Assembly (NCBI RefSeq): GCF_022870865.1 | Contig: NZ_CP091508.1 | Location: forward strand, 744,001 to 808,000 | Reading direction: 5' to 3' | DNA length: 64,000 nt | Origin: Uruburuella testudinis | GTDB lineage: Bacteria; Pseudomonadota; Gammaproteobacteria; Burkholderiales; Neisseriaceae | In this document: piece after piece, positions 45,154 through 61,139 of the stretch | How the letters are laid out: each line of letters opens with the position of its first letter | Numbering within the stretch: the first letter of the stretch is position 1 | Program-made: the position numbers and the translations under genes | The notes under the pieces: model-generated | What the model was told of the DNA's origin: nothing | Databases searched by the model: none | Seen by the model: the letters and a program-made list of their open reading frames with translations, nothing else

Positions 45154-45241
45154 TATCATTGCGGCCTGCGTGGCAGTGAACTGTCGGTCATGCGAACGCG
45201 GGCCCCCGTTGTTTATCATTGCGGCCTGCGTGGCAGTGAAC
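45154..45241 (-). CRISPR. Mini-CRISPR with a divergent type I-F repeat (two repeats, one spacer)
   Basis: Two identical 28-base repeats at 45154-45181 and 45214-45241 enclose one 32-base spacer: exactly the 60-nt period of the main array. On the transcribed (minus) strand the repeat begins GTTCACTGCC, then ACGCAGGCCG and CAATGATA; 21 of 28 positions equal the main repeat. The Cas6f stem has one mismatched pair and the G...A loop closure is lost, and the 5' handle is CAATGATA instead of CTTAGAAA. The spacer is GC-rich and starts AACAACGGGGGCC on the minus strand. The right side carries a second copy of the main-array leader. Confidence 0.8.
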
Positions 45242-45380
45242 TAGGCTATTTATCGTTCAACTCTTTTATTCCCAAGCCTGTGGCGTAGAGAGCAGTTATA
45301 GATCTTTTTTAAAAGGCCGCCTGAAACCTTTAAAAAAATCAGGCTCTTTAGGTTATGGTTTAAAAAAGGTGAAATTCCCA
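45242..45380 (-). promoter_or_regulatory. Duplicated CRISPR leader beside the mini-array
   Basis: Aligns base for base, with scattered changes, to the leader at 52077-52210: GCTATTT-ATCG-TCAACTCTTT, CTGTGG, CCTTTAAAAA and CAGGCTCTTT all recur in order. On the minus strand the promoter of the main leader (TTGAGA, 17 bp, TAAAAT) has become TTGGGA with a one-base deletion in the -10 (TAAAT), so transcription is probably weaker or lost. Confidence 0.7.
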
Positions 45381-48988: not shown

Positions 48989-51900
48989 TTTATAAGCTGC
49001 CTGTGCGGCAGTGAACCCAAAGACGGCCATCACGTCCAAACCTTTGATTTTCTAAGCTGCCTGTGCGGCAGTGAACGCATTCTGACTGATTATGCAGCAG
49101 AACAACTATTTCTAAGCTGCCTGTGCGGCAGTGAACGAAACAAAACACCCGCACGCTGACCTGATTGTTTTCTAAGCTGCCTGTGCGGCAGTGAACGGCG
49201 TCTTGCTCAAACTCCATGCCGTCAAACTTTTCTAAGCTGCCTGTGCGGCAGTGAACTTGACCCCCGCCGCCAAAGAAACCCGCCGAAATTTCTAAGCTGC
49301 CTGTGCGGCAGTGAACATGAGCGACTACGTCCCGATTTGCGCGCTGCATTTCTAAGCTGCCTGTGCGGCAGTGAACGGTCTCGCCCAAATCGACTCCGAC
49401 AGCAAGGTTTTCTAAGCTGCCTGTGCGGCAGTGAACTAAACCTTATGTGTCATCGGTTGGTCTCTATTTTTCTAAGCTGCCTGTGCGGCAGTGAACCAAG
49501 TATGCGCAGGGTATGCGCGTTGGGGTCATTTCTAAGCTGCCTGTGCGGCAGTGAACTTTACGGCTTGCCCGCGGAGGTGATTTACCACTTTCTAAGCTGC
49601 CTGTGCGGCAGTGAACGCGAGAAGCCGCGTCGGTTGCAGTTAGTGCATTTTCTAAGCTGCCTGTGCGGCAGTGAACGCACACGCCGATGCGCTGCTGGCG
49701 CTCACGGATTTCTAAGCTGCCTGTGCGGCAGTGAACAATCGCACCGTATGCGGTCGCCGCAGAAGACTTTTCTAAGCTGCCTGTGCGGCAGTGAACGAAG
49801 ATATTTTTTATGCGCACAACGTAGGCAGTTTCTAAGCTGCCTGTGCGGCAGTGAACAGTATCGATGCCTGTTACGTCCATGATTTTGCTTTCTAAGCTGC
49901 CTGTGCGGCAGTGAACACCACACCCCCCGAATCCCTACCACCGTTCGCTTTCTAAGCTGCCTGTGCGGCAGTGAACTCCCACGGCTTATCGGTTTTTTGC
50001 GCCAGCTTTTTCTAAGCTGCCTGTGCGGCAGTGAACATTGCAATCACATGTCTAATCGCTTTGGTTGTTTTCTAAGCTGCCTGTGCGGCAGTGAACGGTA
50101 TTTGTATTTTAAAAACGCTGATGCGTGTTTTCTAAGCTGCCTGTGCGGCAGTGAACGAACATGATGGTTTTTCCGATTTCCCGATTTCTTTCTAAGCTGC
50201 CTGTGCGGCAGTGAACTGCCATCACGCGGGTAGGTGTGACAGTAGCTTTTTCTAAGCTGCCTGTGCGGCAGTGAACGAGTGGAAAGCCAGAACACAGAAC
50301 GTTATGGTTTTCTAAGCTGCCTGTGCGGCAGTGAACCAGTATGGCGACGCGCCGAACGACAGCGTAGATTTCTAAGCTGCCTGTGCGGCAGTGAACCTGA
50401 TGTGTACGTGGTGCGGGTGGTACAGGCATTTCTAAGCTGCCTGTGCGGCAGTGAACGCTCTCGTCGACCACCACCAGGTCATAACGCTTTTCTAAGCTGC
50501 CTGTGCGGCAGTGAACGAGACCATGTCAGGGGATACCCCTGCGATTGCTTTCTAAGCTGCCTGTGCGGCAGTGAACTAGTGCCAATTCGGCATTGGTGTA
50601 GTTATCAATTTCTAAGCTGCCTGTGCGGCAGTGAACTCTGCGCGGTCGAATGTCGCCTCGCCCGCGTTTTTCTAAGCTGCCTGTGCGGCAGTGAACCCCC
50701 CCACCGTGCCTCTTCGGATTGCTCGTACTTTCTAAGCTGCCTGTGCGGCAGTGAACGGATATGGGCGACCGGGCGCCCTATACTTTTTTTTCTAAGCTGC
50801 CTGTGCGGCAGTGAACATTGAGTAGTGAGCGGGTGAGCGTCGGTTGATTTTCTAAGCTGCCTGTGCGGCAGTGAACGGCTATACGCTGCCCGACAAGGGT
50901 ACGGAGGTTTTCTAAGCTGCCTGTGCGGCAGTGAACCCTACATGAACGGGCTGGTGCTGGATACCGAATTTCTAAGCTGCCTGTGCGGCAGTGAACTATC
51001 GTGTGCAAGTGGTACTCTGCAATGTAAGTTTCTAAGCTGCCTGTGCGGCAGTGAACTCGCGGTATTGGTCAAATTCTCTCGCTGTTGTTTTCTAAGCTGC
51101 CTGTGCGGCAGTGAACGAAATTGGCGGATTGGCAGGAATACGAGGCATTTTCTAAGCTGCCTGTGCGGCAGTGAACATATCGTGTGCAAATAGGGCGCTG
51201 CAATATAATTTCTAAGCTGCCTGTGCGGCAGTGAACTGACAATCGCTTGGTGAGTGAGTGGGAAATAATTTCTAAGCTGCCTGTGCGGCAGTGAACACTG
51301 ACATTGGCGCTTTCGGTTATCGGTGCGTTTTCTAAGCTGCCTGTGCGGCAGTGAACGCCTTCTTATGTGTAAGATGATGAATTTTATATTTCTAAGCTGC
51401 CTGTGCGGCAGTGAACCTTTACGTTTGTTAAAACATGTAAGAAATATATTTCTAAGCTGCCTGTGCGGCAGTGAACAAGGTTTCGGGGTGTTTGCGCCAT
51501 TGGCGTAATTTCTAAGCTGCCTGTGCGGCAGTGAACAATACACACATCTTAAACAAGCGCCCCGATACTTTCTAAGCTGCCTGTGCGGCAGTGAACGGAT
51601 GGAAGCCGGCGCCCTCGATATGGCCATATTTCTAAGCTGCCTGTGCGGCAGTGAACTTCGGGTAGCTGTACCACACCCGCCGCTTGTTTTTCTAAGCTGC
51701 CTGTGCGGCAGTGAACTCAAGCACGCGCTGCGAGGGGATTTCTTCAAATTTCTAAGCTGCCTGTGCGGCAGTGAACTATTGCGGCGCGCGCCGCCGCGGC
51801 GCTTGAATTTTCTAAGCTGCCTGTGCGGCAGTGAACGCAGCAGCGGCGGGGGTGATTTGGTTGTTCATTTTCTAAGCTGCCTGTGCGGCAGTGAACAGTT

Positions 51901-52076
51901 AGTGCACGGCGACCGCATAACGCGGTCATTTCTAAGCTGCCTGTGCGGCAGTGAACAACGTAATAAAATCAAGCTGATGGGTAAGAGATTTCTAAGCTGC
52001 CTGTGCGGCAGTGAACATTTAAAAAAGTTGAAATGAAAAAAATAAATATTTCTAAGCTGCCTGTGCGGCAGTGAAC
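48989..52076 (-). CRISPR. Type I-F CRISPR array, 52 repeats and 51 spacers
   Basis: Perfect 60-nt periodicity: 28-base repeat, 32-base spacer, 51 times without a single length deviation. On the transcribed (minus) strand the repeat is GTTCACTGCCGCACAGGCAG followed by CTTAGAAA; the Cas6f stem is CTGCC/GGCAG with loop GCACA. Fifty-one repeats are identical; the leader-distal one at 48989-49016 has one change (TTTATAAG instead of TTTCTAAG on the plus strand), as expected of the oldest unit. Newest spacers lie on the right next to the leader. Many spacers translate into clean protein-like frames on one strand, consistent with phage genes as sources. Spacers at 50997 and 51177 are variants of one target. 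Confidence 0.98.
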
Positions 52077-52292: not shown

Positions 52293-52379
52293 TATAATCA
52301 CACTCAAACTGCCGTGCAGGCAGCTTAGAAATAAAAGATATTAATAGTTATTTTAACCGCCGAACAGGCGGAATGGCTT
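52293..52379 (+). ncRNA. Candidate cas-regulating mini-CRISPR RNA (CreR-like) for type I-F
   Basis: TATAAT at 52293-52298 (preceded by TG) would start RNA near 52305. Pseudo-repeat 1 (52304-52331) matches the array repeat at 22 of 28 positions, with stem CTGCC/GGCAG, loop GTGCA and a perfect 5' handle CTTAGAAA. Pseudo-repeat 2 (52352-52379) keeps 17 of 28 but its stem CCGCC/GGCGG shows a compensatory T-A to C-G change and a G...A loop (GAACA), so pairing is conserved. Between them is a 20-base pseudo-spacer, TAAAAGATATTAATAGTTAT, 12 nt (two Csy3 steps) shorter than the 32-nt array spacers. It is on the opposite strand to the array, reading towards csy1. No good -35 box is visible. Confidence 0.75.
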
Positions 52380-52510
52380 TATTTGAAGTTGTTTGTTAAC
52401 ACTGCATGTGCCGGCCCCTTTGTCTATACAGGTAATCAGGTTTTCTAACTGTTGCTGATAAACTATCAGCATAAAATTTTAGAGGTATCAATTTGTTTTA
52501 ATATTCAAAA

Positions 52511-52560
52511 CCTAAAAAATATTTTTATTATTTCCTAAAAAATATTTATATTAATATTTA
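52511..52560 (+). promoter_or_regulatory. Two CC-PAM target-like sites in front of the csy1 promoter
   Basis: CC followed by TAAAAAATATTT occurs at 52511-52524 and 52534-52547. Against the pseudo-spacer, the second site (protospacer from 52536) agrees at positions 1-5, 7-11, 13-15, 17, 19-20 and 22-25; in the first 20 the mismatches are 6, 12, 16 and 18. The first site agrees at 1-5, 7-11 and a few later bases (14 of 20). CC is the known type I-F PAM. The better site ends directly at the -35 box of csy1. Confidence 0.7.
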
Positions 52561-52642: not shown

Positions 52643-54016
52643 ATGCAGGAAATTACACCGGAGCATGTTCGTGCGGCCATTGGGCGGTTTTGTGATGGTC
52701 TGTATCAAAAAAAGGCAGAGTCTGAGCTGAAAAAGTTGGAGAAGGCGCGTTTATCGCAAAATGAAAGTGAAATTGCCGCACTCGAAGCAACATTGGCCGA
52801 GCTTAAGCAAAAATACTTGCCGGCCCGCTGGATAGCATCGGATGCGTTGCGTTTTGCTACGCAATTAAAATTTGGATCGCATATCTCAAAAGGGGTTCAC
52901 CCCGATGCAAAGGGCGACAATATTTATTTTCAGACCGCATTTACACTGCCGCCTCATCTTGCCGGTTCGCAATTGCTCTCTGAGCCTGCCTTAGATGCCA
53001 ACGGCAATGCTGCCGCTTTGCCTTTGGCGGCTTTTTTAAACCTTACGATCGATGATGCAGGCCGTCTGAAACTGCGTGATTTGCTGCAGGAAAACCATGC
53101 GGCACTGCAAGGTTGTTTTGCGGATGATGAAGCAGAATCAGCTCGCATCTGCACTGTTTTTCAGACGGCCTTAAAAGCAGAAATCGATCAGCCTGTTTGC
53201 CATGAGCGCAACAAGCAGATTTTGTGGCCATTGGGGGAGGATGCGGCGGTACGGGATGATTATGTCTGTTTGGTGCCGTTGCATCCCTCGGCGCTGGTGC
53301 ATGAGGTGTATCAACGCATCCATCAAATCCGTTATGGCGAAGCAAGCAAGGCAGCCAAAGAAGCCCGTTTTAAGCATAAAGAAAACGAAATGCAGCCTTA
53401 TTTCACAACATTGCCGATGGGTGTGGTCAAGCTGGGCGGCAGCCAGCCGCAAAATGTCAGCCAGCTGACCAGCCGACAAGGCGGGCTCAATTATTTGCTG
53501 CCGGCTTTACCGCCTCAGTTTGCCCGCGACGGGGCGTATCAGTTAAAGCCACAGCATGCTAGTTTTTTCAACCGGTCGCTGCGTTATGCCTGCCGCGAGC
53601 CGTTTGAGAATTTGAAAAGAGTAGTGGTTGCTAAAAAATCTATTATGCAAATCCGCCATTTACGCCAAGATGCGCTCGAACATATGCTGGGGATTATTCT
53701 GGATCTTGCCGAACATATTCAGACGGCCAAACCGGCAGGTTGGAGCCGTGATTTTCCGCAACTGCCGCAAGCGCAAAAATACTGGCTCGATCCGAACCGT
53801 GCAGCGCTGGAAGGCGAAGCAGATTTTCAGACCGGCTGGGGAAATGATTGGGAAACAACGGTGCAGCAGCATTTTACTTTATGGCTGAATAGTTGGTTCA
53901 AGCAGCAATTTCCTAAAAAAGCGGCAGAATTCAACGATGCCGAATATCAACAGTGGTATCGCGATATGCGTCATGCTTTGCGTGCGGCGCAGCGGAACGG
54001 AAGGAGCGCCGCATGA
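52643..54016 (+). CDS. csy1: Type I-F Cascade large subunit Csy1 (Cas8f)
   Basis: 457 residues. Recognisable Csy1 features: coiled N-terminus (KKAESELKKLEKARLSQNES), LKFGSHISKGVHPDAKGDNI, LVPLHPSALVHEVYQRI near 215, and LGGSQPQNVSQLTSRQGGLN near 265, the segment shared by Csy1 proteins. With Csy2 it binds the crRNA 5' handle and reads the PAM. Overlaps csy2 by ATGA. Contains uptake sequences, so the locus has been adapted to this genus. Confidence 0.95.
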   Translation: MQEITPEHVRAAIGRFCDGLYQKKAESELKKLEKARLSQNESEIAALEATLAELKQKYLPARWIASDALRFATQLKFGSHISKGVHPDAKGDNIYFQTAFTLPPHLAGSQLLSEPALDANGNAAALPLAAFLNLTIDDAGRLKLRDLLQENHAALQGCFADDEAESARICTVFQTALKAEIDQPVCHERNKQILWPLGEDAAVRDDYVCLVPLHPSALVHEVYQRIHQIRYGEASKAAKEARFKHKENEMQPYFTTLPMGVVKLGGSQPQNVSQLTSRQGGLNYLLPALPPQFARDGAYQLKPQHASFFNRSLRYACREPFENLKRVVVAKKSIMQIRHLRQDALEHMLGIILDLAEHIQTAKPAGWSRDFPQLPQAQKYWLDPNRAALEGEADFQTGWGNDWETTVQQHFTLWLNSWFKQQFPKKAAEFNDAEYQQWYRDMRHALRAAQRNGRSAA

Positions 54017-56802: not shown

Positions 56803-59800
56803 TTATGTCCACCAAAACCCTGACCATTCGTTAAAGTGCCAGCTTATTTGGCGGTTGCTGTCTGATTTCGGCAGCGATAGGGTGGCGAATTTTAATGCGG
56901 TTTGTATGGGGTTGGGCTGGTCGGTTTGTTGTTCCAGTTCTGTGAGTGCCGCGGTCAGGTTGGCGGTAAGCCAGGGAAAAATATTGGGGCTGTGGGTGAG
57001 CTCGGCGGGGTGGAATATGTGGTTGTCGTTTCCAGTGTCGTCGTAAGGGTGGGCGTAGGCGTTTTCAGCCAGTTTGAAGCGGTAGCCGCCTTCGCCATCG
57101 GGCAGGCAGATGTAATCTTCGTGGGGACGGCTGAGGCGGAAGGGGCTGATTAAGGCGGTGTGGGCGCTGAGTGGGGCGGCACTGCCGGGGGTGCGGTAGG
57201 CGGTAACGAGGTTGGGGTGGTCGGGGTTGAGCAAGGTTTGCATGGCTGCGTGTTCGAGTGCGGCGAGGTTGGTGTAGTAGCGACGGCCTTCTTCAGGCAG
57301 TGGCATGGGAAAATCAGAGCGCAGCAGCCGGGGCAGGCTGTTAATCGGATTGATTTGTGTGCTGTCGAGTAAATCGCGGGCGGTGTCGCTATCGAGGCAG
57401 AAATCGGGAGCGGATTCAAAGCCGGGGTGGGTAAAGTTGATTTTGTCGTTGTCTTTGCCATAACGCCGGCGATTGCTTAATGCGCGCAGGTTGTGGCTCA
57501 TAATCAAAATGTTGGCGTGTGTGGCGGTTTTGTTGCTGCGGTGCCGCCATACGCGCCCGGCGAGTTGGATGATCGAACGCATGGATGAGGGTTCGACAAT
57601 GGCCCAGTCATAATCGTGGTCGCGGCCGACTTCGGTAACGGGGGTGCCGAGGATGATGAAAATATGGTTTTTGGCGCTGCTGTGTTGCAGGGCTGCCTGA
57701 ATTTCGGGTTGGTGAAACAGGGCTTCGGGATGATGACGGTCGAGCAGGCGGTCGAGCGTGTTTTCGAGCTTGCTGCGTAACAACAGTAATTGGCGGGCAT
57801 GGTAGCAGGCAAGGTGGATGGCGGTGTCGGGCGGGGCATCGCCGGTGAGCAGGGTGTGGGCGATGCTCAGCATGGGTTGGATATTGGCGAAGCGGATCAG
57901 GCCGATGCTGATTTGTTTGCCGCTGTTTGGGCAGGTTTGGGCTTCTTGTTGGTGCAGGCGGGCGGCGGCTTGGAGCAGCCTGTCGGCGATGTGCCGGTGG
58001 TCGGCATTGTCGAGCGGCAGCCAGTCGGCTTTTCGGCGGGCGGGTGCTGCGGCCAATTTTGCGGCTCGGGCGGCGGTAAAGGTGTGATGAGCTCGGGAAA
58101 AGGCGGCTGTATCGGTGCAGGCTTCGGCGTGTTTCCGGTGTTCGTCAAACCAGGCGCAAACCACCGGCAGATCGGGCAGCCCTTGTTGGGCATTCCAGAT
58201 TTTCCGGCCTTCGCGATAGGCTTGTTGCAGACCGCAGACAAAATCGGGGGTAAGGGTGGCGGAGGAAAGCAGTATGCGGCTGCCGAGCATGCCTGCCCAG
58301 TAAACCAGGCGGGAGAGGGCGGGCAGGTCGGCTTGGTTGAAGTCGTCGGGTTCGTCCAGAATCAGGTCTGCGCTCAACAGGCGCAGCATGGGGGCGATAT
58401 AGCGGCCGCCTCGCTGTTGCTCGCTCAGTTGCATCAGGTGGTCGATGGTACAGCTGACCAATGGGCTGTAGAGCAGTTGCCGTGCTTTGCCATCGGCGAT
58501 TACGGTGCCGAAGAGTGTTTCATCTGCACCGCCGGAAAGTAATTCGGGGGCATCGGGTATTTCAGCCGGGTCGAGCAATGCTTGCGCCGATTCGCTGCCG
58601 GTTGGTAAATGTTCGGATGGTCGGCGGTAATCGTGACCGTTGCCGGGTTGGTGGTGTTCGAAAAGGGTGTGTACCGCTTTGCCGCCCACCAATACGGCGA
58701 GGTGTTCTTCGTTAAGGTTGAGTTTGGTGCGTAAGGCTTGGCCGGTTTGCAGGGTGAGTGTGCGCAGCCCCAGTGCAATGGTAAAACGGGCGCCGCGTTG
58801 CGGATTGGCAAGTGCGTACATGATGCGGGCGTTGCCCAATGTTTTGCCGCAGCCTGTGCTGGCAAGGTTGACGCCGAAAAAACCTTGTTGTTCGGAAGCT
58901 GTTTGAAAGCGGGCGGCTAAGTCATAGGCATGGTTTTGCCATTGGAAACGGGGATGGGTAGTGCGGCGGCTGAAGGCTTTGTGTTTGCCGATGGCTGGCA
59001 GCGCGCGGGTGAGTTGCGGCAACAGGCGGGCAAAGCGGGCGGTAAATGCGCCGACTCCGATTAAGTGTTCGTCGAGGGTTTGTTTGATCTGGCTGTTGAG
59101 GTCGGTGTTGGCGGCCAGCGGGAAGCCGCTGTCGCCTGATTTGCGTTGTTTGGCATCTGCTTTGAGGCTGGAATAATTGTGATCGCCTACCATCAGGCTC
59201 AGGCGCGATAAGTGCAGCAGCAGAGGGTTGAGGCCGTCTGAAAGGGCAAACAGCGGCGGATGGTTGAGTGCTTTGCCGGCCCAGCGGGCGATGGCTTTTT
59301 GCCAGCTTTTGCTTTGGGTGGGCAAGGTTCGCGCGTGCCATTGCCAGAATGTGCCGGCATCGGCCTGGCTGTGGGGGTTGTGTACCCAATAGTCGGCAGG
59401 GCGGAGGTTTTGGAAAAACTGTTCGATGCTTTGGTGCAAATAAGGGTCGTTGCTGCGTTGCAGTTGTTTGCGTTGGCGGCCGTCTGAGTAATTGATTTCG
59501 TTATAAAACGGCAGTCGGTGGTGGCTGGCAATCAGCCAGGCCACCCAGCGGGCCAATGGCGGCAGGGTGCTGAAGTCGTACTGGCAGGCTGGTTCGCGGA
59601 TGATGGCGTCAACCCAGTTTGGCTCTCCGGTTTCAAATGCGGCCCAGCCGGCCAGCCGTTGCAGCCATTGTTCGTCGGTGTGGCAGCCGCTTATCATGGC
59701 TTGAAACAGGCGCAGCGAAATCCATTCGTGGCGGTAAGGGTCGGCCTCGCGACTGTGCCCTTGTAATTTGTGTTGAAAGCCGCTGCTGGCTTTGCCAAAA

Positions 59801-60171
59801 TCGTGTAGTAAGGCAGCCAGCGTGGCGATGATTTGGATTGAGGCCGCATGTTGCCAAGTGTTTTCGTCGGGGTTTTTGAGTATGTTGCGGCGGCTGCGGT
59901 TGGTGGGTGTGCGGCCTTCGGTGTTGAACTGGCTGCGGTCGCCGACAATCCACAACAATTCGGTGTGGTTTTTACCATGTGTCCAATAGCAGGCAACGGC
60001 GGTGTTTTTGCGGGCGCTGCGGCGCAAAAGTTTGTGCAGCATGCTCAGCCCGGCTTGGGTTATCGGTGTTTGCCAAGTGCGCTCGCCGCAGCGTTCTGCG
60101 AATTGGTCGAGAATGCGGCGGGTCTCTTTGATCGCGTTTTTCCGACATTGGCTGACCAGCAGAATATTCAT
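56803..60171 (-). CDS. cas3: Type I-F Cas2-Cas3 fusion nuclease-helicase
   Basis: 1122 residues. The N-terminal ~95 residues (MNILLVSQCRKNAIKETRRI) are the Cas2 domain; an HD nuclease follows (ALLHDFGKASSGFQHKLQGH, about 120), then an SF2 helicase with Walker A STGCGKTLGNARIMYAL (about 440) and DEAD-like LILDEPDDFNQADLP (about 610), motif III SSATL and motif VI QLAGRVWRHR (about 890). It degrades targets marked by the Csy complex and, with Cas1, acquires spacers. Its start overlaps the cas1 stop. It is convergent with cas6f, opposite to the canonical layout. Confidence 0.96.
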   Translation of the reverse strand: MNILLVSQCRKNAIKETRRILDQFAERCGERTWQTPITQAGLSMLHKLLRRSARKNTAVACYWTHGKNHTELLWIVGDRSQFNTEGRTPTNRSRRNILKNPDENTWQHAASIQIIATLAALLHDFGKASSGFQHKLQGHSREADPYRHEWISLRLFQAMISGCHTDEQWLQRLAGWAAFETGEPNWVDAIIREPACQYDFSTLPPLARWVAWLIASHHRLPFYNEINYSDGRQRKQLQRSNDPYLHQSIEQFFQNLRPADYWVHNPHSQADAGTFWQWHARTLPTQSKSWQKAIARWAGKALNHPPLFALSDGLNPLLLHLSRLSLMVGDHNYSSLKADAKQRKSGDSGFPLAANTDLNSQIKQTLDEHLIGVGAFTARFARLLPQLTRALPAIGKHKAFSRRTTHPRFQWQNHAYDLAARFQTASEQQGFFGVNLASTGCGKTLGNARIMYALANPQRGARFTIALGLRTLTLQTGQALRTKLNLNEEHLAVLVGGKAVHTLFEHHQPGNGHDYRRPSEHLPTGSESAQALLDPAEIPDAPELLSGGADETLFGTVIADGKARQLLYSPLVSCTIDHLMQLSEQQRGGRYIAPMLRLLSADLILDEPDDFNQADLPALSRLVYWAGMLGSRILLSSATLTPDFVCGLQQAYREGRKIWNAQQGLPDLPVVCAWFDEHRKHAEACTDTAAFSRAHHTFTAARAAKLAAAPARRKADWLPLDNADHRHIADRLLQAAARLHQQEAQTCPNSGKQISIGLIRFANIQPMLSIAHTLLTGDAPPDTAIHLACYHARQLLLLRSKLENTLDRLLDRHHPEALFHQPEIQAALQHSSAKNHIFIILGTPVTEVGRDHDYDWAIVEPSSMRSIIQLAGRVWRHRSNKTATHANILIMSHNLRALSNRRRYGKDNDKINFTHPGFESAPDFCLDSDTARDLLDSTQINPINSLPRLLRSDFPMPLPEEGRRYYTNLAALEHAAMQTLLNPDHPNLVTAYRTPGSAAPLSAHTALISPFRLSRPHEDYICLPDGEGGYRFKLAENAYAHPYDDTGNDNHIFHPAELTHSPNIFPWLTANLTAALTELEQQTDQPNPIQTALKFATLSLPKSDSNRQISWHFNEWSGFWWT

Positions 60172-61139
60172 CCGACCGCTCCTTGCGCTGCAAGTTGTTT
60201 TAAGGTGTCGATAACATGATCGAGTGCTTCAAAGCGAGTGAGTTGTTCGATGCAGATTTGGCGGAAATCACGGGGGCTGTCGCCCGCGGTGGCAGAAATA
60301 AAGGCCTGAGGCAGAATCAGGGCATCTTTAATGATGTCGGCAGCATCGAATACCAGGCCGCCGCGCCGCGTTTTGCCATGCAGCACTGCCAGCCCGTGCG
60401 GCAGCCCCAATACCCAGCAGGCGGTGGCACCGATGCCGTAGGCCAGGTAGTTGCCGTGGTCGAGAAAAATGTTGGCCGGATCGCTGCGCTCGCCGCGTGT
60501 GCTTCGGCGGAAGAGGGCATCTTGTTGTGTGGCCTGATTGGCAAGTGCATATAGGGCGGTGGTCAGGCGGCCTTCGGCGGCCAGCAGCGACATGCTGTCG
60601 GCGGCGGTGGCAAACGCGGCCGAAAATTGTGTCAGCAAGTTGTTCAGACGGCCTGTGTCGTATTGCCAATTGAGTTTGGGCCAGCATTGGGCAATGGTTT
60701 GCAAACGCATTTGTTGTAATTGTTTGGCGCATTGCAGACGCTTGTCGTCATCAAACCAAAATGCGCACCATTGCTGTAGATATTCGGTGGGGCGGTATTC
60801 GCTTTGCGGACTGAAAAATTCACAGCCGATTTCTGCTTCGGTGCCGGCAAACAGAGGTGTGCCGCCGCCTGCGCTGAAGCCGATCATCACGCCGGCTTTG
60901 CTCAAGTCGCGTACCGCGGCCTGGGTGATGGATGTGCCGCTGCCGAGCAGAATGCAACTGGTATTGGCGATAGGAATATTCCAGTAGAGCGATTCGCTGC
61001 CCTGTTCGGTGATATATTCCACCCGGCCACCGTTTACCACAACGCGGCAATGCTCCAGATAATAAATATGGGCACGTTTCGAATGCAGAATGGTTTTCAG
61101 CTCCGATGGGGCGAGATAGGCAGGTTTGGATTTGGGCAT
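60168..61139 (-). CDS. cas1: Type I-F CRISPR integrase Cas1
   Basis: 323 residues. Opens MPKSKPAYLAPSELKTILHS; contains HSKRAHIYYLEHCRVVVNGG, ITEQGSESLYWNIPIANTSC and the C-terminal helical metal site with FLDHGNYLAYGIGATACWVL and LPHGLAVLHGKTRRGGLVFD. It inserts new spacers at the leader end together with the Cas2 part of Cas2-3. Heads the cas1-cas3 unit, with a gap of about 170 bp to eda. Confidence 0.96.
   Translation of the reverse strand: MPKSKPAYLAPSELKTILHSKRAHIYYLEHCRVVVNGGRVEYITEQGSESLYWNIPIANTSCILLGSGTSITQAAVRDLSKAGVMIGFSAGGGTPLFAGTEAEIGCEFFSPQSEYRPTEYLQQWCAFWFDDDKRLQCAKQLQQMRLQTIAQCWPKLNWQYDTGRLNNLLTQFSAAFATAADSMSLLAAEGRLTTALYALANQATQQDALFRRSTRGERSDPANIFLDHGNYLAYGIGATACWVLGLPHGLAVLHGKTRRGGLVFDAADIIKDALILPQAFISATAGDSPRDFRQICIEQLTRFEALDHVIDTLKQLAAQGAVG

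What the first reader, a model, noticed from the sequence alone, without database searches (positions are those of the whole stretch)
52293..52379. CreR-like mini-CRISPR in front of a type I-F cas operon
Between array and csy1, on the strand opposite to the array, a TATAAT box precedes two degenerate I-F repeats. The first keeps the Cas6f stem and a perfect CTTAGAAA handle (22/28); the second keeps the stem through a compensatory T-A to C-G change and the G...A loop (17/28). They enclose a 20-nt pseudo-spacer. This repeat / short spacer / repeat layout beside cas genes is that of cas-regulating RNAs (CreR), which to my knowledge are described for types I-B, I-E and V-A; a type I-F version would be new. 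Conservation of pairing, not sequence, argues against a simple decayed array end.
Basis: partly seen in the sequence, partly recalled or inferred. Interest (0 to 1): 0.95.

Follow-up and report, generated by a model that had tools for sequence, protein, structure and literature searches.

The report
Type I-F CRISPR self-regulating guide RNA
In front of its type I-F CRISPR genes this bacterium carries a shrunken two-repeat CRISPR whose 20-letter spacer matches two sites next to the predicted promoter of those same genes, so a predicted RNA from it would likely guide the bacterium's own Cas complex to hold its production down.

Summary
In detail: TATAAT, a 22/28 pseudo-repeat with a perfect CTTAGAAA handle, a 20-nt pseudo-spacer and a 17/28 pseudo-repeat with an intact stem lie at 52293-52379. 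The pseudo-spacer matches two tandem CC-flanked (type I-F PAM) sites, 52513 and 52536, just upstream of the predicted csy1 promoter: 13/15 and 14/15 outside positions 6, 12, 18, against at most 10/15 at the other CC sites of the window. Over 46 csy1 loci, 14 have a guide-target pair of 13/15 or better, against 8 of 2070 swapped pairs. Spacer and target change together between species, and mismatches pile up at 6, 12 and 18, the bases a type I complex flips out. Best reading: a CreR-type guide that loads Csy, binds without triggering Cas2/3 and represses csy1-cas6f. RNA, processing and repression are untested. The novelty claim fails: an I-F regulatory mini-CRISPR (CreA) is published in Acinetobacter, and a tested I-F1 regulatory mini-array (Shmakov 2023) is recalled. 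New member of a known kind, with clear comparative evidence and tandem target sites.

The parts
52293..52298 (+). TATAAT, predicted -10 box of the mini-CRISPR's own promoter
   Evidence: Sequence. A box with at least 5 of 6 letters of TATAAT lies next to psiR1 in 14 of 18 loci (no shuffle control). The consensus scan reports no promoter here.
52304..52331 (+). pseudo-repeat 1 (psiR1) with Csy4-type stem-loop and CTTAGAAA handle (52324-52331)
   Evidence: 22/28 to the array repeat, 5-bp stem; Rfam CRISPR-DR4 30.9 bits, below gathering score; folds as a hairpin
52332..52351 (+). pseudo-spacer (psiS), 20 nt, TAAAAGATATTAATAGTTAT
   Evidence: Sequence; best CC-flanked match in the 600 bp before csy1 14/15, 0 of 1000 shuffled spacers as good
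52352..52379 (+). pseudo-repeat 2 (psiR2), stem CCGCC/GGCGG kept, handle lost
   Evidence: 17/28, 5-bp stem; 98.8% of stem cells paired in 17 psiR2 with 14 double-sided changes (psiR2 were picked for good stems)
52324..52371 (+). predicted mature guide RNA (8-nt handle + 20-nt psiS + 20-nt hairpin tail)
   Evidence: Inferred from the I-F anatomy reported for Acinetobacter CreA; not measured
52511..52532 (+). upstream target: CC PAM (52511-52512) + protospacer 52513-52532
   Evidence: 13/15 outside positions 6, 12, 18; second best of 8411 CC sites in the window
52534..52555 (+). promoter-proximal target: CC PAM (52534-52535) + protospacer 52536-52555
   Evidence: 14/15; best of 8411 CC sites; only exact match of CCTAAAANATATTNATANT in the 2.95-Mb genome
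52561..52590 (+). predicted csy1 promoter TTGACA-18-TATGGT
   Evidence: Best + strand hit of the consensus scan, 10/12 (5 promoter-like sites found in the region, 2.3 expected in shuffles)
52643..54016 (+). csy1 (cas8f)
   Evidence: TIGR02564, 361.8 bits
54013..55014 (+). csy2 (cas5f), start codon assumed
   Evidence: TIGR02565, 306 bits
54989..55996 (+). csy3 (cas7f)
   Evidence: TIGR02566, 397.6 bits
56000..56563 (+). cas6f (csy4)
   Evidence: TIGR02563, 143.2 bits
56803..60171 (-). cas2/3 (Cas3f with Cas2 domain)
   Evidence: TIGR02562, 1220.2 bits; PF21384 Cas2 domain
60168..61139 (-). cas1f
   Evidence: TIGR03637, 471.5 bits
48989..52076 (-). main type I-F CRISPR array, 52 repeats, leader end facing the mini-CRISPR
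   Evidence: 52 matches to the repeat, 51 exact and one with 1 mismatch

Best explanation
The element at 52293-52379 is a two-repeat mini-CRISPR whose 20-nt spacer matches two CC-flanked sites next to the predicted csy1 promoter, and a predicted RNA from it would be cut by Cas6f, load the Csy complex and likely repress the csy1-csy2-csy3-cas6f operon (a type I-F CreR). Shown by sequence: the two pseudo-repeats, the spacer, the two targets with PAM, the seed match, and co-variation across species. Inferred: transcription from the TATAAT box, Csy4 processing to 48 nt, binding of one or both sites, and repression. The 20-nt guide would form only a truncated R-loop; in an I-F1 system the complex with a spacer shortened by 12 nt binds and opens DNA but does not trigger Cas2/3, so the site would be occupied and not cut. 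The outcome would be a feedback loop: Csy complex not taken up by array crRNA shuts off its own operon, and crRNA demand or an anti-CRISPR would relieve it. The cas1-cas2/3 operon, on the other strand, has no CC site scoring above 10/15 anywhere in the window, so the loop would act on the interference operon only.
For: Targets: among 8411 CC sites in the window the two csy1 sites score 14/15 and 13/15, the next best 10/15; the core pattern has one exact and one 1-mismatch match in the whole genome, both here. Shuffled spacers reach 14 in 0 of 1000. Relatives: over 46 distinct csy1 loci, taking guide-like hairpins anywhere in the held locus and CC sites within 400 bp upstream of the csy1 match, 14 of 46 pairs reach 13/15 or better against 8 of 2070 swapped pairs, and 10 of 46 against 1 of 2070 reach 14 (criteria were set, then applied alike to true and swapped pairs). 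The 14 guides lie 111-455 bp upstream of csy1. Co-change: Aggregatibacter segnis (L049) and NCTC11607 (L051) differ at psiS positions 5, 10 and 11, and their targets carry the same three changes, while the targets alone differ at 6, 18 and 19. Mismatches by position in 14 loci: 0 at 1-5, 10 at position 6, 11 at 12, 11 at 18; enrichment at 6 and 12 p 5e-5 by permutation. Published rule: every sixth base is flipped out in type I complexes (PMC7305327, one passage). psiR1 keeps the 8-nt handle (mean 7.4/8; at least 5 was a search criterion) while psiR2 loses it (3.2/8) but keeps the stem, as expected if only handle 1 and hairpin 2 end up in the guide. Short R-loops bind without Cas2/3 cutting (PMC7296934, abstract and one section). 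An I-F guide with 20-nt psiS and CC PAM represses in Acinetobacter (PMC10097628, passages). The six Cas proteins match their families over nearly full length.
Against: No RNA or expression data. The mini-CRISPR promoter is not found by the consensus scan. In Acinetobacter CreA pairing at 2-5, 7-9 and 13-17 was needed; the window's better site mismatches at 16 and the other at 13 and 16, so binding may be weaker than there. The sites lie upstream of -35, not on it: blocking is plausible, activation not excluded. 29 of 46 csy1 loci show no pair at 12 or better, including G051 with 49% csy1 identity, so the device is not universal. One of the 17 loci at 12 or better (L034) is taken as chance, since its guide is an array-type repeat downstream. 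Hits at 11/15 (L061, L053, and G095's own psiS) are at a level 20% of swapped pairs reach. In one search, 4 of 18 assigned spacers did not match: two were psiR2 mistaken for psiR1 (corrected), one is the other spacer of the G056 mini-array, one the last unit of an ordinary array. In the stem counts one of five measures, further pair types, did not exceed the shuffles for either repeat.
Confidence: 0.87

Rival explanations
1. CreA of a CreTA module: the same guide represses a small toxin gene hidden near the target, making CRISPR addictive.
For: Same anatomy as the I-F CreA of Acinetobacter, which also lies in the gap before csy1. In relative G025 a 76-aa ORF without Pfam or NCBIfam match lies between target and csy1. 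Short minus-strand frames exist in the gap, 10 aa from ATG 52567 and 31 aa from TTG 52491, so a small or RNA-only toxin cannot be excluded.
Against: In the window the gene after the targets is csy1; no + strand frame of 5 or more codons starts between the predicted -10 box and csy1. In L049 and L051 the targets lie just before the csy1 start.
Confidence: 0.06
2. The guide-loaded Csy complex activates csy1, since the nearer site lies just upstream of -35 where activators bind.
For: The protospacer ends 5 bp upstream of -35 in the window and lies close upstream of a TTGACG in G025 and G047.
Against: Other loci place the target inside the likely promoter (G064) or just before the csy1 start (L049, L051); published cases repress.
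Confidence: 0.05
3. A decayed end of an array, with no function.
For: Repeats are degenerate; position next to the array.
Against: It lies at the leader end and on the opposite strand of the array; stems vary by paired changes; psiS-target match and co-change.
Confidence: 0.01
4. An RNA anti-CRISPR (Racr) or phage-derived solitary repeat.
For: CRISPR-repeat mimicry by phages exists in I-F (PMC10651486, passages).
Against: Two repeats with a matched host target inside the cas locus. Of 19 viral contigs with the handle plus seed string, none has a G+C-rich I-F stem before it; one (L102) has an A+T-rich 5-pair stem and four share a 4-pair one.
Confidence: 0.01

Closest known systems
CreR (cas-regulating RNAs, types I-B, I-E, V-A)
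   Same: crRNA-like RNA with partial complementarity to the cas promoter, generally without a toxin (review passages PMC12737573 and PMC13131331); mini-CRISPR layout is recalled
   Different: Type I-F effector; two tandem targets; function not measured here
CreA of the type I-F CreTA, Acinetobacter WCHA45 (PMC10097628)
   Same: I-F, 20-nt psiS, CC PAM, two degenerate hairpin repeats, sits before csy1; positions 10, 12, 19, 20 dispensable (passages)
   Different: Represses a toxic small RNA, not cas; needs 13-17, where the window mismatches at 16; here the target lies beside csy1
Regulatory mini-arrays / crlRNAs, Shmakov et al. 2023 NAR (content recalled; only citations of it seen)
   Same: By recall, mini-arrays matching cas8 promoters are widespread and one from type I-F1 was tested
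   Different: Could not be read, so it is unknown whether any locus here is listed there
Atypical arrays of type I-F3 CRISPR-transposons (PMC12150760, passages)
   Same: Two imperfect repeats around one spacer next to I-F cas genes
   Different: Guide transposition to a chromosomal site; here cas1 and cas2/3 are present and the spacer matches the csy1 region; transposase genes were not searched for

Membership tests
CreR (cas-regulating mini-CRISPR) | Two degenerate repeats of the resident type around a short spacer beside cas genes | tested here: met
CreR (cas-regulating mini-CRISPR) | PAM-flanked partial match of the spacer to a cas promoter | tested here: met
   14/15 and 13/15 at CC sites before csy1; the promoter itself is predicted
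CreR (cas-regulating mini-CRISPR) | Spacer-target match kept in relatives although sequences change (my criterion) | tested here: met
   14 of 46 loci against 8 of 2070 swaps; 3 co-changes L049/L051
CreR (cas-regulating mini-CRISPR) | RNA made and matured by Cas6 | not testable with these tools
   No RNA data; hairpins predicted, z -2.79
CreR (cas-regulating mini-CRISPR) | Effector-dependent repression of cas, relieved by crRNA competition or Acr | not testable with these tools
   needs a reporter assay
CreTA antitoxin CreA | Target controls a linked toxin | tested here: inconclusive
   next gene after the target is csy1 and no + strand frame of 5 or more codons starts after the predicted -10; short minus-strand frames or an RNA toxin are not excluded
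Racr (RNA anti-CRISPR) | Solitary repeat on a phage or other mobile element | tested here: not met
   two repeats with a spacer inside the cas locus; prophage context was not searched
Ordinary CRISPR array | Near-identical repeats with about 32-nt spacers in array orientation | tested here: not met
   22/28 and 17/28 repeats, 20-nt spacer, opposite strand

The most novel reading that the evidence does not exclude
A type I-F autoregulator with a tandem operator: two abutting CC-flanked targets spaced 23 bp (2-nt PAM + 20-nt psiS + 1), on which two Csy complexes sit head to tail before the csy1 promoter and give a steep switch that reads the pool of unloaded Csy complex. Double sites of 12/15 or better also occur in Oligella, Sansalvadorimonas and G282 (4 of 18 loci with the window, at spacings of 20 to 129 bp), so this may be a recurrent design, not described for CreR in anything I could read.
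Probability: 0.25. Interest if true: 0.7.

Novelty: new member of a known kind. Interest (0 to 1): 0.55.

Why it matters
If right, type I-F systems in several families (Neisseriaceae, Pasteurellaceae, Moraxellaceae and others; families by recalled taxonomy) carry a built-in guide aimed at their own effector operon, each locus with its own matched guide and target. This is a natural data set on which bases a Csy complex reads in the cell (6, 12 and 18 free) and a simple answer to how a strong defence avoids over-expression: a short guide that binds without cutting. It makes directly testable how I-F cas expression senses crRNA load and anti-CRISPRs.

Tried and rejected
Second tiny array at 45154-45241: repeats 21/28 with 4 of 5 stem pairs; its spacer's best CC sites in the window are three at 11/15 in unrelated places; not taken as a second regulator.

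psiS against the rest of the window, including the cas1-cas2/3 side: no further CC site above 10/15. Viral contigs with handle plus seed: 19 found, none with a G+C-rich I-F stem. A csy1 single-sequence scan of genome contigs found no relative; the alignment scan found 30 loci.

First assignment of psiR1 in Psychrobacter (L063) and Pasteurella atlantica (L068) was wrong (psiR2 taken); the relaxed scan corrected it and gave 14/15 and 15/15. G051 (L030), Conchiformibius (L037) and the distant csy1 loci L018 and L021-L026 gave no pair of 12 or better (for the last seven only 1.5 kb of flank was held). L034's 12/15 comes from an array-type repeat downstream and is taken as chance; its mini-array's own psiS gives 11/15.

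Papers: Shmakov 2023 not held; statements about its content are recalled. No held text was found that names an I-F CreR on a cas promoter (searches, of which 5, 11, 45, 67 and 72 list only the top 12 or 20 of 24 to 108 papers).

Full report
What was checked. The stretch 52293-52379 holds, on the + strand, TATAAT at 52293, psiR1 at 52304-52331 (22/28 to the array repeat, perfect CTTAGAAA handle), a 20-nt psiS at 52332-52351 and psiR2 at 52352-52379 (17/28, 5-bp stem kept by a T-A to C-G change). The main array (52 repeats, 48989-52076) is read from the other strand with its leader end toward this element. In shuffles of the gap the best 28-mer match was 18/28 in 300 trials, and a psiR2-like stem-loop at the right distance came up in 0 of 5000. 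Rfam sees psiR1 as CRISPR-DR4 below its gathering score and does not see psiR2. The single strand folds with both hairpins, z -2.79, 2 of 200 shuffles as stable.

The target. I scored psiS against CC-flanked sites (CC is the I-F PAM; PMC10097628 passages) over positions 1-5, 7-11, 13-17. In the 64-kb window 8411 CC sites give 14/15 at 52536, 13/15 at 52513, and no other above 10/15. Both are on the + strand, 23 bp apart; the second ends 5 bp before the TTGACA (52561) of the predicted csy1 promoter. In the whole 2.95-Mb genome the pattern CCTAAAANATATTNATANT has one exact match, 52534, and one with a single mismatch, 52511; the next are psiS itself and unrelated sites with two mismatches. In the window shuffles expect 0.03 matches at up to 2 mismatches against 3 found, one of them psiS itself. 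Shuffled psiS reach the observed score in 0 of 1000. Over all 20 positions the better site mismatches at 6, 12, 16 and 18, the other at 6, 12, 13, 16, 18 and 19.

Relatives. csy1 was found in 21 of 299 related genomes, 12 of 83 in the family, and in 30 loci of the genome-contig collection. I then scanned 46 distinct csy1 loci: every hairpin with a handle-like tail anywhere in the held locus as guide (loci of 3.4 to 24 kb), every CC site within 400 bp upstream of the csy1 match as target. The criteria were set after a first look but used alike on true and swapped pairs. True pairs reach 13/15 in 14 of 46, swapped pairs in 8 of 2070; 14/15 in 10 of 46 against 1 of 2070; 12/15 in 17 of 46 against 61 of 2070; 11/15 in 24 of 46 against 414 of 2070. 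The 14 are the window, G047, G025 (same genus), G064, Oligella urethralis, G056, Pelistega, Aggregatibacter segnis, Sansalvadorimonas, the strain deposited as Pseudomonas stutzeri NCTC11607, Psychrobacter, Moraxella lacunata, M. caprae and Pasteurella atlantica. Guides lie 111-455 bp upstream of csy1. G282 and Rodentibacter caecimuris reach 12; L034 also, but by an array-type repeat downstream; the 'Crenarchaeota' MAG L061 and Moraxella sp. L053 only 11. In the family, 5 of 11 assessable genomes have a pair of 12 or better (window, G047, G025, G064, G056) and 6 do not (G051, G061, G065, G075, G055, G063; the last four have distant csy1 and short held flanks); G066 is cut at the contig edge.

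Spacer and target change together. Across 18 loci (the 16 at 12 or better without L034, plus L061 and L053) the psiS agree at a mean of 5.9 of 15 positions, yet 16 of 18 fit their own target at 12 or better; of 306 swaps only the two between the Moraxella species with the same psiS give a site of 12 or better. A. segnis and NCTC11607 have targets at nearly the same place on the same strand; their psiS differ at 5, 10 and 11 and the targets differ in the same way at all three, while the targets alone differ at 6, 18 and 19. Mismatch counts in the 14 loci (chosen by psiR detection and uncorrected p of at most 0.02, best site by all 17 positions): none at 1-5, 10 at 6, 11 at 12, 11 at 18, 0-6 elsewhere; enrichment at 6 and 12 p 5e-5 by permutation. 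On the set the counts at 6, 12 and 18 are 10, 11 and 10 of 14, but there the other positions were selected to match. Every sixth base is flipped out in type I complexes (PMC7305327, one passage). This is the fingerprint of a Csy-bound guide on double-stranded DNA.

The repeats. psiR2 stems in 17 distinct sequences pair in 98.8% of cells with 14 double-sided changes (shuffle mean 4.8); psiR1 in 18 loci 97.8%, 25 double-sided changes (shuffle mean 7.3); the number of further pair types did not exceed the shuffles in either. Both were picked for a good stem, which inflates the paired percentage. The handle is kept in psiR1 (7.4/8; 5 was required) and lost in psiR2 (3.2/8, no requirement). A TATAAT-like box of 5 or 6 letters lies next to psiR1 in 14 of 18 (no shuffle control). 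psiS length is 16-30 nt in these 18, against 32 in the window's array.

How it likely works. The RNA would start near the 5' end of psiR1, be cut by Cas6f at both stems to a 48-nt guide, load a short Csy complex, and bind 52513 and/or 52536. In the I-F1 system of Aggregatibacter the complex shortened by 12 nt binds and opens its target but does not trigger Cas2/3 (PMC7296934, abstract and section on spacer length). So the site would be occupied and not cut, and the csy operon held down. The six Cas proteins match their families above cut-off. Because array crRNAs compete for the same proteins, the loop would sense unloaded complex; that part rests on reviews of CreR (passages) and is untested here. 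Against a simple carry-over from Acinetobacter: there positions 13-17 were needed, and both sites here mismatch at 16.

Known or new. Reviews held here give CreR for I-B, I-E and V-A or for type I and V-A. A type I-F CreA with 20-nt psiS is published. From recall, Shmakov et al. 2023 reported mini-arrays matching cas8 promoters and tested one of type I-F1; the paper could not be read. I therefore file this as a new member of a known kind. What I did not find in print in the searches named under Tried and rejected is the tandem operator and the cross-family co-change evidence, but unread tables may hold it.

Noticed in passing
window 45154-45369: A second, two-repeat CRISPR remnant on the minus strand (repeats 45154-45181 and 45214-45241, 21/28 to the main repeat, 4 of 5 stem pairs) followed at 45252-45369 by a stretch 81% identical to the leader of the main array.
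   Followed up: partly
L007/L029 (genome G025, same genus): A 76-aa ORF without Pfam or NCBIfam match lies between the mini-CRISPR target and csy1; it may be an added first gene of the operon or a guarded toxin-like gene.
   Followed up: partly
L035/L017 (genome G056): The mini-array has two spacers of 32 and 30 nt; the second matches a site upstream of csy1 at 15/15, the first only at 7/15.
   Followed up: partly
window 56803-61139: cas1-cas2/3 are on the opposite strand, convergent with the csy operon, so adaptation and interference genes must be under separate promoters.
   Followed up: no
window 52453-52471: Perfect 8-bp hairpin TGCTGATA-AAC-TATCAGCA between mini-CRISPR and targets, followed by TAAAATTTT; possible end of the guide transcript or an operator.
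   Followed up: no
L051, L061: Record names look doubtful: 'Pseudomonas stutzeri' NCTC11607 carries a mini-CRISPR close to that of Aggregatibacter, and a contig titled Crenarchaeota carries a type I-F csy1 locus.
   Followed up: no
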